Source of the DNA: Terriglobia bacterium
GTDB taxonomy: Bacteria > Acidobacteriota > Vicinamibacteria > Vicinamibacterales > CAVVIG01
Length of the DNA: 64,000 nucleotides
Reading direction: 5' to 3'
Assembly: GCA_020073005.1 (NCBI GenBank)
Contig: JAIQFX010000008.1
Coordinates: 1-64,000, forward strand
The translations under genes and the position numbers were made by a program. The notes beneath the pieces were generated by a model. That model was not told where the DNA came from, did no database searches, and saw only the letters and a list, made by a program, of their open reading frames with translations. Positions 1 through 6,073 of this stretch are shown one piece after another; position 1 is the first letter of the stretch, and every line of letters starts with the position of its first letter.

Positions 1-111
1 ATCGCCGCGCATGCATGGCTCGAGCACGCCGGGCGCATCGTCGTGGGCGGAGATGCGGCGCCGGCCTACCAGATCCTGCAGGCGCCCAGCCCCATGCGAG
101 GAGAAAGATGA
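1..111 (+). CDS. Lasso peptide B2-type (transglutaminase-like) leader peptidase, C-terminal end only
   Basis: The reading frame enters from the left edge and stops at TGA 109-111, giving 36 residues. It contains HAWLEHAGRIVVGG, which matches the conserved end of lasso-peptide B2 proteins, where the HAW-type His belongs to the Cys-His-Asp triad of a transglutaminase-like cysteine protease. Known B2 proteins remove the leader peptide from the lasso precursor with help from the B1/RRE protein. The frame overlaps the next start codon by ATGA (108-111), so the two are translationally coupled. The call rests on a short fragment and on the neighbours (RRE protein, cyclase, precursor); the catalytic Cys lies outside the window. 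Confidence 0.7.
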   Translation: MAAHAWLEHAGRIVVGGDAAPAYQILQAPSPMRGER

Positions 112-386
112 CCATGTCGCTCGATGCGACCGTGAAGATCCCGGAGGATGTCGTGTTCCGCGAGCTCGACGGCGAGGCCGTGCTCCTGAACCTCGAAAGC
201 GGTATCTACTTCGGGCTCGATCCGGTCGGCACGCGGATCTGGCAGCTCGTCGAGGAACATCGCGCGCTGCGCCGCGTCCTCGAGGCGCTGCTGGCCGAGT
301 ACGAGGCGTCGGCCGCGGTCCTCGAAGCGGATCTGGTCCGCTTCGTGGAACAGCTGCGCGGCAAAGGTCTTCTGACCGTCGTATGA
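108..386 (+). CDS. PqqD-like RiPP recognition element protein (lasso B1)
   Basis: The protein has 92 residues, the usual size for a free-standing PqqD/RRE protein. ATG 108 is chosen because it forms an ATGA overlap with the upstream stop and has a GAGGAGAAAG Shine-Dalgarno just before it; ATG 114 is an alternative. Family features visible are a beta-rich N-terminus (PEDVVFRELDGEAVLLNLES), then GIYFGLDPVGTRIWQLVEE, then helices ending LVRFVEQLRGKGLL. In lasso systems such proteins bind the YxxP part of the leader and deliver the precursor to the B2 protease. The precursor at 3780-3971 carries that motif. It overlaps the next gene by ATGA. Confidence 0.85.
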   Translation: MTMSLDATVKIPEDVVFRELDGEAVLLNLESGIYFGLDPVGTRIWQLVEEHRALRRVLEALLAEYEASAAVLEADLVRFVEQLRGKGLLTVV

Positions 387-1858
387 CCGTGCCAGGGGTC
401 CACGTCTTCGAGTACCACGACGAGGCCTATCACGTGTGGCGCGCCGCCGGCGTCCGCGACGCGACGGTCGTGCACGTCGACGCGCATCACGATCTCTCGT
501 GGCTCGACGATCCCGTCCATCTCCATATCGGAAACTACCTCTGCCAGGCGATCAAGGACGGCATCGTGCGCGAGGTGTACTGGGTCGTGCCCGACGGCGC
601 GCTCGGCGCGCCGCGCGCCAGGCGCGAAATCCGCCGGCAGCTCCGGAATCTGCGCCGCGAGTACCCGCGGCCGCGACGTCCAGTGCGGCGCGCGGGCGAC
701 GTGTGGTCATGCGAGCTGCGGGGCTGCCGCGTCGTCGTCTGCGATCTCGACACGCTGCCCGCGCTCAGCGGCACGGTCCTTCTGGACCTCGATGTCGACT
801 TCCTCCTCACGCCAGGCACTCGGATCGGCGAAGGGTCTCCGGCGGATGAGCCCTGGCTCTGGCCGTCGGACTGCGTGGCGCGGCTTCGACGCGCGCGTCT
901 CGCGCCCGCCCTTGCGACGATCGCCTCGTCCGTGGAGGGCGGATATACGCCGCTCCGGTGGAAGTACTTCGGCGATGAATTGGCCGCGCGGCTCCTCGGC
1001 GCGGACGCGCCGGGCTTCGATCGGCTGCACGAGGCGCACCGCCTCGCGGGAACGGGAGCCGTGGCCGCGGCCGCCGAGGCGTACAGGGACGCCGCGGCCG
1101 CGCTGCCGAATCCGGCCGCGGCCGAATACGCGCTCGCTCTGCTGCTCGCGCAACGCGGCCAGATCGAGGCGGCGCGCGCCGCGCACCAGGCGGCCCGCGC
1201 GCACGACCCTTCGTATGCCACCGCGTACAACTGCGCGGGCCCGGCGGCGCTCGATCGCGGACACGTCGAGGCCGCCGAGCGGGCGTTCACGGATCAACTG
1301 GCGCTTGATGATCGCGATGGCCACGCCAGCGCGGGGCTGGCGTGCGTGGCGCTGCACCGGCGTCACTGGTCCGAGGCGGAGGCGCACGCGCGCGGCGCGA
1401 TCGCGCGCGGAGTCGACGCGCCCGACGTCCATCGCGCGCTCGCCCGCGCGCTCCAGCAGCAGGGACGGATTGGCGAGGCCGTGACCGCGCTGCAGCGTTC
1501 GCTGCGCGTCACGCTCGACGGCCGCGCGCCGCGGTGCGCCATCGCCTCGCGCCGGCTCTCTCGTCTTCCCGTGTGGGACGCGGAGCACGGACGCGCGTAC
1601 GCCGCGCTGGCGGCGCTCGAAGCCCGGCTGGGCCGCATCCGCGACGCGATCGCGGCGCTGCGACTCGCGATCTCGAGCGGGTATCGGCGTCCCACCGTTC
1701 ACGCCCGCCTCGCGCGGCTGTACGCGCGCGAGCATCGCTGGGCCGCGGCGCTCGCTGAAGCCGCCGCCGCGTGCGCCGCGGCGCCCTCGTCGTTCGCCCG
1801 CGCGCAGCGCCGGGTCCGCGCCGCGCTCACGCTCCGTCTGGAGGCGCTTCGCGCATGA
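383..1858 (+). CDS. UPF0489-family (peptide arginase-like) protein fused to a TPR domain
   Basis: The protein has 491 residues, starting at ATG 383 (ATGA overlap with the RRE gene). Residues 1 to about 205 look like UPF0489, an arginase/ureohydrolase relative: HVDAHHD at 31-37 and LDLDVDF at 134-140 fit the two metal-binding motifs (DAHxD and DxD). Residues from about 215 to the end are Ala-rich helical TPR-like repeats. UPF0489 includes peptide arginases such as OspR of the landornamide pathway, which turn Arg into ornithine in RiPP precursors. Two Arg in the predicted lasso core (positions 13 and 15) are plausible substrates, but this is inferred only from family and context. The TPR part could hold the enzyme in a complex. 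Confidence 0.75.
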   Translation: MTVPGVHVFEYHDEAYHVWRAAGVRDATVVHVDAHHDLSWLDDPVHLHIGNYLCQAIKDGIVREVYWVVPDGALGAPRARREIRRQLRNLRREYPRPRRPVRRAGDVWSCELRGCRVVVCDLDTLPALSGTVLLDLDVDFLLTPGTRIGEGSPADEPWLWPSDCVARLRRARLAPALATIASSVEGGYTPLRWKYFGDELAARLLGADAPGFDRLHEAHRLAGTGAVAAAAEAYRDAAAALPNPAAAEYALALLLAQRGQIEAARAAHQAARAHDPSYATAYNCAGPAALDRGHVEAAERAFTDQLALDDRDGHASAGLACVALHRRHWSEAEAHARGAIARGVDAPDVHRALARALQQQGRIGEAVTALQRSLRVTLDGRAPRCAIASRRLSRLPVWDAEHGRAYAALAALEARLGRIRDAIAALRLAISSGYRRPTVHARLARLYAREHRWAAALAEAAAACAAAPSSFARAQRRVRAALTLRLEALRA

Positions 1859-3783
1859 GCGCCATCGCCGGCGTGTGGCGCCGCGGCGGCCGTCCAGTCC
1901 ACGGCGCCGACGTCGATCGGATGCTCGATCGACAGGCGCACCGGGGGCCGCACGGACGAGGCGTCTGGAAGGATCTCTCGATCGCGGTTGGCCACGCCAG
2001 CCTGCAGGTCACGCCGGAATCGCGCGGCGAGCGCCAGCCGCTCGTCGATGAGTCGACGCGGAGCGTGCTGGCGTTCGACGGCCGCCTCGACAACCGCGAG
2101 GAAGTGATTCGCGCGCTCGATGCCGCGGGGCACCACACGCGGTCTTCAACGGACGCGGATTCGGAGATCGTCCTGCGCGCGTGCCAGGCGTGGGGCACCG
2201 ACGCGCCGCGCCGGTTGCTCGGCGATTTCGCCTTCGTGTTCTGGGACGGACCGCGCCGGAGACTGCTCGGTGCGCGCGACGCGTGGGGCGTCCGTCCGTT
2301 CTGCTATCGCGTCGACGGCGATCGCGTCGCGTGGGCCTCCCAGGTGCACGCGCTCGTGCAGGCGCCGCTCGATCAGCCGCCGCCCAACGAGGGATTCATC
2401 GCGGAGCTGCTCTGCAGCATCGTGAACAGCACCGACGAGACGCTCTACTCCGGCGTGTATCGTTTACCGGCGGCCTGCATGCTCATCGTCACGCCGGACG
2501 CGGTGCGTATCGAGAAGTACTGGAGTCTCGATCCGCGCCGCGAGGTGCGCTACCAGGACGACCGCCAGTACGACGAGCACTTCCTCGCCCTGCTCGACGA
2601 GGCCGTGGAATGCCGGCTTCGCACGGACGCGCCGGTCGGCATCATGCTGAGCGGCGGCATCGATTCGTCCATCGTTGCGGGCGTGGCCGCGAACGTGTCG
2701 ACGCGCGGCGGACGACCGTTGCCCAGAGCCTTCTCGTTGATCTATCCCGGCTACCCCTGCAGCGAGCAGCCGTTCATCGAGGCGGCGGCGACGCATGCGG
2801 GTCTCGAGAGCGTCTGCGTCGCGAATCCCGACGTGGACTCGTACGAAGACGACGTCCGGCGGTATCGCGACCTGCCGACGCACGCCGCCGGCGCGGCGTC
2901 TGAACCGGTGTTTGCGCTGGCGCGCCGGCAGGGCGTACGGGTCATGCTGACGGGCCTTGGCGGGGACGAATGGTTCAGCGGCCACCAGTCACGCTATGCC
3001 GACCTGGTCCGTCGTGGACGGTTCATTCGATTGTGCCGGGAAATCCGCGACGACGTGCGCAATGACGCGTTGAACGGATGGCGTCGCGCGCTCTGGAATA
3101 CGGTGAGGCCGATGATGCCGGATTCGGCGCTGGCCCTCGCGCGGCGCGCCGTGGGTCATTCGCCGATTCCTTCGTGGATTCGGCCCTCGTTCGCCGCGCG
3201 CGTCGGGCTGCGCGATCGCTTGTACAACGTGCCGCGCCGGTTTGGATTCCCCACGCACGCGCAGAACGAGCAGTTTCGCGAGGCGGTCGCCGGGTTCAGC
3301 ATCCACGGCTACGAAATGCTCGATCGGAGCATCTCGCAGTACGGCATGGAGGCGGCGCATCCCCTCAACGACCGCCGCCTGATGGAGTTCGGGATGGCGC
3401 TGCCCGAAGAGCAACGCTGGCGGCACGGCACGCGCAAGGCGATCATGCGCCGCGCGGGCGCGTCGCTGGTGGCGCCGTCCGTCCGGACTCGCGGCGAGAA
3501 CGCGAGCTACGCGCGGCCGTACGATGACGCCATGACGCGGCTTCGGGCGCGGGAACGCCTGGGCGCGCCGGGCGCCGCGTTCGACCAATGGGTCGACCGC
3601 AACGTCCTGCTCGCCAGCTATGATCGGATCGCGGGCACGCCGGACGCCTACGACTGGCCGCACTGGATGGCCCTCAGCGTGCGGCTCTGGTCCGATCAAC
3701 TGCTCGAGGATCGCCCGCGCGCCGCTGAGCCGGCCGTCGGGCACACCGATAACGTGAGGCACGTGAAAGGGAGACAACGATGA
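1855..3783 (+). CDS. Lasso peptide cyclase, asparagine synthetase B-like (lasso C protein)
   Basis: The protein has 642 residues from ATG 1855 (ATGA overlap with the previous stop). It has an N-terminal class-II glutaminase-like fold and a C-terminal ATP-pyrophosphatase domain with SGGIDSS at 266-272. The N-terminus is MSAIAGV: the catalytic Cys2 of true glutamine-hydrolysing AsnB is Ser, so ammonia release is not expected. That fits lasso cyclases, which adenylate an Asp/Glu side chain of the core and close the macrolactam with the core N-terminus. The very next gene, overlapping by ATGA, is the precursor, which strongly supports this over ordinary asparagine synthesis. Confidence 0.85.
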   Translation: MSAIAGVWRRGGRPVHGADVDRMLDRQAHRGPHGRGVWKDLSIAVGHASLQVTPESRGERQPLVDESTRSVLAFDGRLDNREEVIRALDAAGHHTRSSTDADSEIVLRACQAWGTDAPRRLLGDFAFVFWDGPRRRLLGARDAWGVRPFCYRVDGDRVAWASQVHALVQAPLDQPPPNEGFIAELLCSIVNSTDETLYSGVYRLPAACMLIVTPDAVRIEKYWSLDPRREVRYQDDRQYDEHFLALLDEAVECRLRTDAPVGIMLSGGIDSSIVAGVAANVSTRGGRPLPRAFSLIYPGYPCSEQPFIEAAATHAGLESVCVANPDVDSYEDDVRRYRDLPTHAAGAASEPVFALARRQGVRVMLTGLGGDEWFSGHQSRYADLVRRGRFIRLCREIRDDVRNDALNGWRRALWNTVRPMMPDSALALARRAVGHSPIPSWIRPSFAARVGLRDRLYNVPRRFGFPTHAQNEQFREAVAGFSIHGYEMLDRSISQYGMEAAHPLNDRRLMEFGMALPEEQRWRHGTRKAIMRRAGASLVAPSVRTRGENASYARPYDDAMTRLRARERLGAPGAAFDQWVDRNVLLASYDRIAGTPDAYDWPHWMALSVRLWSDQLLEDRPRAAEPAVGHTDNVRHVKGRQR

Positions 3784-3971
3784 GTGAAGATCGCCGCACC
3801 GGATCGCAGGGAGATTCGTCCGACCAGGACCGCGCGCGCGAGTCCAGGCCGCGTCGTCCGTATACTTCACCGTCGCTCGTCGAGTACGGATCGATCGCGC
3901 GCCTGACGCATACCGGCGGGTCGACGGCCAAGGAAGGGGCGACTCCGAGGGTCAGGACCGGCTGCCTCTGA
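3780..3971 (+). CDS. Lasso peptide precursor (leader plus predicted 19-residue core)
   Basis: The peptide has 63 residues, with a Shine-Dalgarno (AAGGGAG) 7 nt before ATG 3780 and an ATGA overlap with the cyclase. The leader has the lasso/RRE signature Y28-x-x-P31-x-L33-x-x-x-G37, followed by ARLTH with Thr43 at position -2 of the predicted cleavage site. The predicted core is TGGSTAKEGATPRVRTGCL (45-63), with Glu52 at core position 8, so an 8-residue ring closed by Glu8 is expected. From memory, register and spacing match the lariatin precursor (YxxPSLVxxG...ARxTx, Glu8). Thr as residue 1 is unusual; cleavage before Gly46 would give a 7-residue ring but break the Thr(-2) rule. The tail has Arg13, Arg15, Cys18 and a C-terminal Leu. 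Confidence 0.85.
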   Translation: MSEDRRTGSQGDSSDQDRARESRPRRPYTSPSLVEYGSIARLTHTGGSTAKEGATPRVRTGCL

Positions 3972-3973
3972 GC

Positions 3974-5110
3974 ATGTCCCGCGACCTCGACGAGCATCGC
4001 CAGTACCTCGCCGACGCGCCGCGCGTGGAGGCCTTCCGCCTGGCCATCGCGGAAGTGGTTCGCCCGGGCGATGTCGTCGTCGATCTCGCGGCAGGGTCCG
4101 GCGTGCTCGGTCTGCTCGCCTGTGAAGCCGGCGCCGGCCGCGTGTACGCGATCGACGACGGGTCGATCCTGACGCTGGCCGAGAAACTGGCGGTCGCCAA
4201 CGGCTGGGGCGATCGCATCGTCCACGTCCACGAGACGTCCACCCGCGCCGTTCTTCCCGAATCCGTCGACGTCATCGTCACCGATCAAATCGGGCGCTTC
4301 GGAATGGAGGCCGGGCTCATTGACGTCCTCCGCGACGGCGCGCGCCGGTGGCTGAAACCTGGCGGCCGGATTGTGCCGGCTCGCGTCGACCTGATGATCG
4401 CGCCGGTCGAGAGTCAGCCGCTGCGCGATCGCGTGGAGTTCTGGAACAGCCGGCCGTCCGGAATTGATGTCTCGGCCGGCTATCGCACGGCGTGCAACAG
4501 CGGATTTCCCGCCGACCTCCATCCGCGTGAGCTGCTGACGGCCGGAACGCGCATCATGTCGCTGGACGCCTCGCCGGGCGGCCCCGATCTGTTTCGCGGC
4601 GAGGCAGAGCTCACGATCGACCGCGGCGCCGTTCTCGACGGCCTCGCGGGATGGTTTCAGGCGGCGCTGTCGCCGTCGGTGATGATGACCAACGCCCCCG
4701 GGCATCCCGATCGCATCCGCCGGCGCCAGGTCGTCTTTCCGCTCACGCCGCGCACGCGCGTCAAGGCGGGCGACACGCTGCGCGTGTCGATGAAGACCCG
4801 GCCCGCCCAACTCATCGTGGACTGGGCGGTGACGGTCGCGCGTGGCGCCGCCACGTTGGCGGCCTTCCATCACTCGACGCTCGACGGCATGCTGCTGTCG
4901 GCCCGCGATCTCCATCGCAGCCGGCCCGACTTCGTCCCGCACCTCACGCCCGCCGGCGTCGCGCGCCGCTCGGTGCTCGAACTGTGTGACGGCACGCGCG
5001 CGATTGCGGACATCGAGCGCGAGATGATGGCGCGCCACGCCGACCTGCTGCCGGATGCGGCCGCCGCCGCGACGTTCGTCGCCGAAGTCCTCGCCGTCTA
5101 CGGACAGTAG
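3974..5110 (+). CDS. PRMT-like SAM methyltransferase with C-terminal PqqD-like (RRE) domain
   Basis: The protein has 378 residues and starts 2 nt after the precursor stop. The N-terminus HRQYLADAPRVEAFRLAI and the SAM motif DLAAGSG (37-43) resemble protein arginine methyltransferase-type class I enzymes. TDQIGRFGME (103-112) stands where PRMTs have the double-E loop, with Asp replacing the first Glu and one residue fewer between. The last 60 residues or so (HLTPAGVARRSVLELCDGTR onward) read as a PqqD-like winged helix. Inference: the fused RRE binds the lasso leader and the methyltransferase acts on the core, perhaps on Arg13/Arg15 or the C-terminus. A methyltransferase for another substrate is possible. 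Confidence 0.7.
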   Translation: MSRDLDEHRQYLADAPRVEAFRLAIAEVVRPGDVVVDLAAGSGVLGLLACEAGAGRVYAIDDGSILTLAEKLAVANGWGDRIVHVHETSTRAVLPESVDVIVTDQIGRFGMEAGLIDVLRDGARRWLKPGGRIVPARVDLMIAPVESQPLRDRVEFWNSRPSGIDVSAGYRTACNSGFPADLHPRELLTAGTRIMSLDASPGGPDLFRGEAELTIDRGAVLDGLAGWFQAALSPSVMMTNAPGHPDRIRRRQVVFPLTPRTRVKAGDTLRVSMKTRPAQLIVDWAVTVARGAATLAAFHHSTLDGMLLSARDLHRSRPDFVPHLTPAGVARRSVLELCDGTRAIADIEREMMARHADLLPDAAAAATFVAEVLAVYGQ

Positions 5111-5119
5111 CGCTCCCGC

Positions 5120-6073
5120 ATGAACCGTTATCGCGTCGGCCCGCTGCGGCTGCAGAGCCGGATGGCCATTCCCGAGCTGCAGCCGTTCGCGTGCGCCTCG
5201 AGCGAGGCATGGACGTTCCGCGTCGCGCACGCGGGCGTCGCGCCCGCGCGCGGCGTCGCGTGGTTTCATGACTGGACGTTTCCGGATGGCCGGCGATGGC
5301 TGATGGTCGGGCGTCTCGGCCGCCGGTACGTCGTGCGATTCGCGCGCGTCGCGTCGTTCCTGATCGATCCGTCGGCGCGAGTGATCACGGCGTTTCCGGG
5401 CCCCGGCGTGCCGGCGCGCACGATCCGCCACCTGCTCCTCGATCAGATCGTGCCGATGCTCCTCGGTGACGCCGATCATCTGGTCGTGCACGCGAGCGCC
5501 GTCGTGGCCGGCGGCGGGGCCGTCGCGTTCATCGGCCCGTCGGGCAGCGGCAAGTCGACGCTGGCCGGCGCGCTCGCGCGGCACGGATGCGCCCTCGTCA
5601 CGGACGATTGTCTCGTCGTCGATCTCGACCGGCGGCCGGCCCACGTGATCCCGACGTACGCGGGCCTGCGTCTGTGGCCGGACGTGCTGCAGGCGCTCTT
5701 TCCCGGCGAGCACCGGCGCACGGCCGGCGTGGCGCACTACTCGTCGAAACGGCGCATGAGACGCCGCCCGGACGAACTCGCGTTTCGGCGCCGCTCCGAG
5801 CCGCTGCGCGCCGCGTGCGTGCTGAGCCCGGCGTCGAAGCGGTCGCGCGTTTCCCAGGTCTCGCTGACGCGGCTGCGCGGCCACGAGGCGTTCGCCGCCG
5901 TGCTGCGCTGCACGTTCCACCTCGACGTCGGCCGCGAGACGACGGCGAGGCGCGCGCTCGAGCGGGTCACGGCGATGCTCGAGACGGTCCCCGTGTTCCG
6001 GCTCCAGGTGCCGCGCGATCTCGCGCGGCTCGATGAGGTCGGCGTGCTGATAGGTTCGTTGATGGCCGTCTAG
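5120..6073 (+). CDS. HPr kinase-like (HprK-related) RiPP tailoring kinase
   Basis: The protein has 317 residues, starting 9 nt after the methyltransferase stop. It has the P-loop GPSGSGKST at 139-147, preceded by HAS (124-126), and TDDCLVVDLD after it, the layout of the HPr kinase/phosphorylase C-terminal domain. The N-terminal part differs from true HprK, and no HPr or PTS gene is nearby. HprK-related kinases are known in lasso clusters; in the paeninodin pathway one phosphorylates the C-terminal Ser of the precursor. Here the precursor ends in Leu, so Thr11, Thr16, Ser4 or Thr5 of the core would have to serve, or the substrate differs. It is the last gene of the operon. Confidence 0.75.
   Translation: MNRYRVGPLRLQSRMAIPELQPFACASSEAWTFRVAHAGVAPARGVAWFHDWTFPDGRRWLMVGRLGRRYVVRFARVASFLIDPSARVITAFPGPGVPARTIRHLLLDQIVPMLLGDADHLVVHASAVVAGGGAVAFIGPSGSGKSTLAGALARHGCALVTDDCLVVDLDRRPAHVIPTYAGLRLWPDVLQALFPGEHRRTAGVAHYSSKRRMRRRPDELAFRRRSEPLRAACVLSPASKRSRVSQVSLTRLRGHEAFAAVLRCTFHLDVGRETTARRALERVTAMLETVPVFRLQVPRDLARLDEVGVLIGSLMAV

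What the first reader, a model, noticed from the sequence alone, without database searches (positions are those of the whole stretch)
1..6073. Lasso-peptide operon with a peptide-arginase-like gene, a PRMT-like methyltransferase and an HprK-like kinase
Lasso B2 (partial), B1/RRE, cyclase and a precursor with the YxxPxL...G leader are coupled by ATGA overlaps to three tailoring candidates. UPF0489 includes peptide arginases that make ornithine in other RiPPs, and the core has two Arg. I do not know of a described lasso peptide carrying ornithine plus methylation and phosphorylation, so this may be a new modification set.
Basis: partly seen in the sequence, partly recalled or inferred. Interest (0 to 1): 0.85.

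Follow-up and report, generated by a model that had tools for sequence, protein, structure and literature searches.

The report
Lasso-peptide operon with peptide-arginase relative
An uncultured Acidobacterium carries genes for a knotted 'lasso' peptide together with a rare relative of an enzyme that turns arginine into ornithine, a kinase and an unusual methyltransferase; no lasso peptide with ornithine was found in the papers searched, so the product could be a new kind of decorated lasso peptide.

Summary
Window 1-6073 is a lasso-peptide operon cut by a contig end. Contig C119 overlaps it by 139 bp and supplies complete B2 and, upstream, a geranylgeranyl-reductase-family flavoprotein. Order: FAD-B2-B1-UPF0489/TPR-C-A-MT-K.

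The UPF0489 call is right but divergent. The window protein itself misses Pfam PF12640, yet a profile of its family finds a single protein in the whole PDB, peptide arginase OspR (8BRP, E=3e-17), with all six Mn-ligand positions conserved.

MT has the PRMT fold (family profile to PRMT6, E=5e-57) but lacks the PRMT double-E and THW signatures, and relatives occur beside cores without Arg, so arginine methylation is unlikely. It goes with HprK-like kinases in lasso clusters across the order.

The arginase-like gene is rare. Five lasso clusters with readable precursors carry it (two in this genus, three elsewhere in Acidobacteriota); all five cores contain Arg, which is not significant (p about 0.13). 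All three tailoring genes were found together only in this genus (2 species).

Best reading: the enzyme converts tail Arg13/Arg15 of the core TGGSTAKEGATPRVRTGCL to ornithine, K phosphorylates ring Ser/Thr, and MT acts near the conserved C-terminal Cys-Leu. Nothing chemical is shown.

The parts
1..111 (+). C-terminal end of lasso B2 leader peptidase (full 163-aa gene completes on contig C119, L003:29-520 minus strand)
   Evidence: lasso_biosyn_B2 NF033537 76.5 bits for the full gene; 139-bp exact contig overlap
108..386 (+). lasso B1 / PqqD-type RiPP recognition element
   Evidence: PF05402 PqqD 71 bits, cut-off 23.4
383..1858 (+). UPF0489 / peptide-arginase-like protein with C-terminal TPR repeats (arginase-like domain about 383-1006, TPRs about 1007-1855)
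   Evidence: family profile hits only OspR 8BRP in PDB, E=3.1e-17; H12, D33/H35/D37, D135/D137 invariant; TPR Pfam hits
1855..3783 (+). lasso cyclase C (asparagine-synthetase-like)
   Evidence: PF00733 145 bits; lass_lactam_cya NF033535 396 bits, below its cut-off of 525
3780..3971 (+). lasso precursor A, 63 aa; leader 3780-3911 (ends YTSPSLVEYGSIARLTH), core 3912-3968 TGGSTAKEGATPRVRTGCL
   Evidence: lasso_leader_L3 18.7 bits against cut-off 19; YxxPxL at -17, Thr at -2, Glu at 8; aligned family
3974..5110 (+). PRMT-fold SAM methyltransferase with an extra ~60-aa C-terminal domain
   Evidence: PRMT_C above cut-off; family profile to PRMT6 E=4.6e-57 over residues 4-274
5120..6073 (+). HprK-like peptide kinase
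   Evidence: TIGR04352 HprK_rel_A E=2.7e-11, below cut-off; HprK motif His, GPSGSGKS, Asp-Asp present in sequence

Best explanation
The locus makes a lasso peptide. B1 (a RiPP recognition element) binds the YxxPxL leader, B2 cuts after LTH, and C closes an 8-residue ring between Thr1 and Glu8 of the core TGGSTAKEGATPRVRTGCL. Before ring closure, while the leader is still on, the UPF0489/TPR protein acts as a peptide arginase and hydrolyses tail Arg13 and/or Arg15 to ornithine (urea released). The HprK-like kinase phosphorylates a ring Ser/Thr (Ser4 or the nearly invariant Thr5), and the PRMT-fold enzyme methylates a site in the C-terminal part, possibly recognised through the conserved Cys-Leu end. 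Shown: genes, homology, conserved metal ligands, purifying selection, gene linkage. Inferred: substrates, sites, order and chemistry.
For: Lasso genes. Leader spacing: YxxPxL at -17 to -12 as described for BsfA (PMC10368454), Thr at -2 and Glu at 8. Arginase: a profile of 11 relatives finds only 8BRP in the PDB, E=3.1e-17, with H12, DxHxD and DxD aligned and the OspR active-site Ser also kept (ligands from PMC10028609). All 11 members hit NF052474, 7 of 11 hit PF12640. Arginase domain dN/dS 0.21. The gene is joined by ATGA to B1 and C; in L071 the same protein is fused to PqqD, which ties it to a leader-binding module. It also lies in lasso clusters of three other Acidobacteriota lineages (L070, L072, L086), whose cores all have Arg. 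Kinase: motif residues match BsfK, which phosphorylates a ring Ser (PMC10368454). MT.
Against: The window protein alone does not reach PF12640 and scores only 24-30 bits on NF052474 against a cut-off of 350. Arg also occurs in 15 of 24 cores without the arginase gene (Fisher p about 0.13). Homologues outside RiPP loci (L088-L095), some with signal-peptide or lipoprotein-like N termini, keep the same motifs, so the motifs alone do not prove a peptide substrate. The arginase domain alone could not be folded and searched; the full-length model was dominated by TPRs. MT substrate and kinase site are guesses from conservation.
Confidence: 0.55

Rival explanations
1. The UPF0489/TPR protein is not a core-modifying arginase but a binding or scaffold protein (TPR adaptor) or an arginase for another substrate, recruited into the operon; the lasso core keeps its arginines.
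For: TPR half is long (283 aa); homologues, some with lipoprotein-like N termini, lie outside RiPP loci (L088-L095); window sequence itself below Pfam detection.
Against: Six metal-ligand positions and the active-site Ser position are conserved in the lasso-associated members; the N-terminal domain is under stronger constraint (dN/dS 0.21) than the TPRs (0.43); fusion to PqqD in L071.
Confidence: 0.27
2. The PRMT-fold enzyme methylates the guanidino group of core Arg (a true protein arginine methyltransferase), competing with or following the arginase (methyl-Arg or N-methyl-ornithine).
For: Strong fold homology to type I PRMTs; window core has two Arg; N-methylated ornithine is known in enteropeptins (PMC12703449).
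Against: The aligned double-E loop reads TDQIGRFGMEAG (first Glu to Asp, second displaced) and the THW loop reads RR; the same MT subfamily sits beside Arg-free cores in G025, G073, G018, G032 and G017.
Confidence: 0.15
3. MT is a C-terminal carboxyl or Cys methyltransferase working like StspM/LasF on lassomycin-type peptides; its extra C-terminal domain reads the Cys-Leu end.
For: Cys-Leu end in nearly all cores beside ~380-aa MTs of the close clade; G011 has an almost identical core ending QGP with a shorter ~320-aa MT lacking that domain.
Against: One close-clade exception (G032 core ends MKP); shared ancestry could explain the correlation; the domain showed no significant match to PqqD.
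Confidence: 0.4

Closest known systems
OspR and FlmR/OhkR peptide arginases (UPF0489, pfam12640)
   Same: Three metal motifs, ureohydrolase homology, RiPP gene-cluster setting
   Different: Very divergent, carries C-terminal TPRs, and sits with a lasso precursor; the precursor types listed in PMC12703449 are NHLP, N11P, SCIFF, SCCRRSCN, DD(I/V)LF and MGXRRSSE, not lasso
Citrulassin with peptidyl arginine deiminase
   Same: Lasso peptide whose core Arg is enzymatically altered (Arg to citrulline; PMC9266682)
   Different: Different enzyme family and product; the deiminase is encoded elsewhere in the genome
BsfK and PadeK lasso-peptide kinases (HprK-like)
   Same: HprK motif, gene in the lasso operon; BsfK acts on a ring Ser (PMC10368454)
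   Different: Site unknown here; the core does not end in Ser, so C-terminal Ser phosphorylation of the PadeK type is not possible
Lassomycin-type methyltransferases StspM/LasF and PIMT-type lasso methyltransferases such as LihM
   Same: Methyltransferase gene in a lasso cluster (PMC9266682)
   Different: PRMT fold with an added C-terminal domain; no such lasso methyltransferase found in the papers searched

Membership tests
Lasso peptide biosynthetic cluster | B2 Cys-protease, B1/PqqD RRE and Asn-synthetase-like cyclase in one operon | tested here: met
   NF033537 76.5 bits over cut-off; PF05402 71 bits; PF00733 145 bits. NF033535 cyclase model 396 bits, below its 525 cut-off
Lasso peptide biosynthetic cluster | Precursor with YxxPxL leader, Thr at -2 and Asp/Glu at core position 7-9 | tested here: met
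   Y28, P31, L33, T43 (-2), E52 (core 8)
Lasso peptide biosynthetic cluster | Threaded macrolactam product | not testable with these tools
   needs expression and MS/NMR
UPF0489 peptide arginase | Six Mn ligands in EEH, DxHxD and LDxDxD motifs | tested here: met
   H12, D33/H35/D37, D135/D137 invariant in 11 relatives and aligned to OspR
UPF0489 peptide arginase | Recognised by the family models (PF12640, NF052474) | tested here: inconclusive
   window protein no PF12640 hit; 7 of 11 relatives hit it; NF052474 hit by all 11, the window protein below its cut-off
UPF0489 peptide arginase | Converts peptidyl Arg to Orn | not testable with these tools
   needs enzyme assay
Protein arginine methyltransferase | SAM domain plus PRMT beta-barrel | tested here: met
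   profile to PRMT6 over residues 4-274, E=4.6e-57
Protein arginine methyltransferase | Double-E loop and THW loop | tested here: not met
   first Glu is Asp, second displaced; THW position is RR
HprK-like lasso peptide kinase | His, GxxGxGKS P-loop and Asp-Asp motif | tested here: met
   VHAS, GPSGSGKS, TDD in 5120-6073; residues as in BsfK; TIGR04352 below cut-off
HprK-like lasso peptide kinase | Phosphorylates the precursor | not testable with these tools
   needs assay

The most novel reading that the evidence does not exclude
A lasso peptide carrying ornithine made by a TPR-bearing peptide arginase, together with phosphate on the ring and a methyl group placed by a PRMT-fold enzyme that does not act on Arg: an unreported set of modifications, and the first UPF0489 enzyme working on lasso precursors.
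Probability: 0.35. Interest if true: 0.75.

Novelty: new variant of a known kind. Interest (0 to 1): 0.6.

Why it matters
If the arginase acts on the core, it extends Arg-to-Orn chemistry to lasso peptides and gives a leader-guided enzyme whose relative is already fused to a recognition element. The order-wide MT-kinase pair defines a further group of lasso clusters with a conserved Cys-Leu end and a PRMT-fold enzyme of unknown substrate, both testable by standard co-expression. Few Acidobacteriota lasso peptides turned up in the papers searched.

Tried and rejected
MT C-terminal domain as a second PqqD/RRE: hhalign against 20 B1 sequences gave probability 0.7%; left open, not claimed. AlphaFold of MT with two sequences was poor (pLDDT 43) and was not searched. 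AlphaFold of the full UPF0489/TPR protein was usable (pLDDT 76), but the fold searches returned TPR proteins only; that absence says nothing about the arginase domain, so the profile search was used instead. Search for more UPF0489-lasso clusters around G298 and G230 gave no new strong member. Arg enrichment beside the arginase gene: 5/5 against 15/24, not significant. Flavoprotein as a lasso tailoring enzyme: it travels with an upstream polysaccharide cassette, so it may not belong to the lasso pathway.

Full report
OBSERVATION. The window begins at the first base of contig C12 of its genome. ORFs 1-111, 108-386, 383-1858, 1855-3783, 3780-3971, 3974-5110 and 5120-6073 lie on one strand. Junction sequences show ATGA overlaps at B2/B1, B1/UPF, UPF/C and C/A; A/MT are 2 bases apart and MT/K 9 bases. 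The B2 fragment completes on contig C119, whose reverse complement overlaps the window start by exactly 139 bp. The completed B2 is 163 aa and passes the lasso B2 model.

LASSO IDENTITY. B1 is a PqqD domain. C has GATase and Asn-synthase domains and its best NCBIfam match is the lasso cyclase, below that model's strict cut-off. The precursor scores just under the lasso_leader_L3 cut-off (18.7 against 19), but its family alignment supports it: P31, Y36, G37 and T43 are invariant in 18 precursors. Using the spacing reported for BsfA (YxxPxL at -17 to -12; PMC10368454) the core is TGGSTAKEGATPRVRTGCL, with Thr at -2 and Glu at position 8.

THE ARGINASE-LIKE PROTEIN. Pfam finds only TPRs and a sub-threshold Arginase hit in the window protein; NCBIfam gives a weak peptide_arginase match (E=1.7e-5). 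Relatives are clearer: L086 scores 1.8e-15 and L070 6.3e-10 on the same model. A profile of 11 N-terminal domains searched against all PDB sequences returned one protein only, peptide arginase OspR (8BRP), E=3.1e-17, with the His and Asp ligands (OspR His12, Asp39, His41, Asp43, Asp165, Asp167; PMC10028609) aligned to invariant residues here. The OspR active-site Ser264 aligns to the nearly invariant Ser183. Seven of 11 members hit PF12640. The domain is under purifying selection between two species (dN/dS 0.21, against 0.43 for the TPR half).

DISTRIBUTION OF THE ARGINASE-LIKE GENE. In 162 genomes of the order it occurs in own, G034 (same genus, identical operon), G013 and G039. A scan of GTDB species genomes gave five loci, four of them Acidobacteriota. 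A phylum sample of 396 genomes gave 13. Lasso clusters with it and a readable precursor are own, G034/L069, L070, G039/L072 and G298/L086. Their cores are TGGSTAKEGATPRVRTGCL, TGGSTAREGGTPRVRTGCL, AGTVGLGDNPGGGKNANRKTGG, TTGEIGNTDGGRPGNSKTA and, approximately, GGGGTRHDTAANTRA; all contain Arg. In G013/L071 the protein is fused to PqqD inside a radical-SAM/HprK locus. Other homologues lie outside RiPP loci, some with lipoprotein-like N termini. Among 24 precursors of the order without the gene, 15 contain Arg (counted), so the 5/5 is consistent but not decisive (Fisher one-sided p about 0.13, computed by hand).

THE METHYLTRANSFERASE. Homologues occur in 29 of 162 genomes of the order, and in 24 loci the kinase is on the same short stretch. 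A profile of 20 members matches PRMT6 at 4.6e-57 over residues 4-274, so the fold assignment is solid. The catalytic signatures are not met: the PRMT double-E loop is TDQIGRFGMEAG and the THW loop is RR. Cores beside it in G025, G073, G018, G032 and G017 have no Arg. Close-clade enzymes have a further ~60-aa C-terminal domain, and their precursors end in Cys-Leu with one exception; G011, with a shorter enzyme, has a core TGGITTKDQGNMFRQGP almost equal to TGGITTKDNGNMFRVCL of G002 apart from the end. This suggests that the enzyme reads or modifies the C-terminal region, but shared ancestry is not excluded.

THE KINASE. It has the His, GPSGSGKS and Asp-Asp elements listed for BsfK and matches HprK-related kinase A (E=2.7e-11, below cut-off). 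BsfK phosphorylates ring Ser3 with help from B1 (PMC10368454). Here Thr5 is nearly invariant in the family ring (GGST), a plausible site by inference. The core does not end in Ser, so the C-terminal Ser site of the other known lasso kinases is absent.

COMPARISON WITH THE LITERATURE. PMC12703449 lists the precursor types served by peptide arginases; lasso is not among them. Full-text searches for lasso peptide with peptide arginase or with arginase gave no report of an ornithine lasso peptide among the titles and abstracts listed, and there were no papers for lasso peptide with protein arginine methyltransferase. The library holds open-licence papers only, so this is not proof of absence. Citrulassin is the nearest precedent for altering Arg in a lasso peptide.

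VERDICT. The finding is real and its gene calls are good. It is a new variant of a known kind: a lasso cluster with a rare, divergent peptide-arginase relative plus an order-wide methyltransferase/kinase pair. The chemical claims remain untested.

Noticed in passing
L003:510-9190 (contig C119, joins window start); L035, L036, L040, L045, L056, L086: The lasso operon lies directly downstream of a polysaccharide cassette: carbamoyltransferase-like protein, glycosyltransferase, bacterial sugar transferase and a geranylgeranyl-reductase-family flavoprotein, in similar order in several lineages including the distant G298.
   Followed up: partly
L071:9947-11626 (L067:8378-10060): UPF0489-TPR protein fused to a PqqD domain in a locus with radical SAM enzymes and an HprK-like kinase.
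   Followed up: partly
L088-L095: UPF0489-TPR homologues outside RiPP loci in Acidobacteriota, some with signal-peptide or lipoprotein-like N termini and a conserved insert; role unknown.
   Followed up: no
window 3974-5110 against L035:7591-8736: The methyltransferase gene is about three times more diverged at silent sites (dS 0.66) than most of the flanking genes (about 0.2-0.26; B1 0.43) between two species, suggesting recombination.
   Followed up: no
L045:7532-8275: Three tandem lasso precursors (cores SGGSTRxE...CL) before one methyltransferase and kinase.
   Followed up: no
L073:9800-11547: Myxococcales locus with a weak UPF0489-like match near a radical SAM gene; no lasso genes recognised there by eye.
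   Followed up: no
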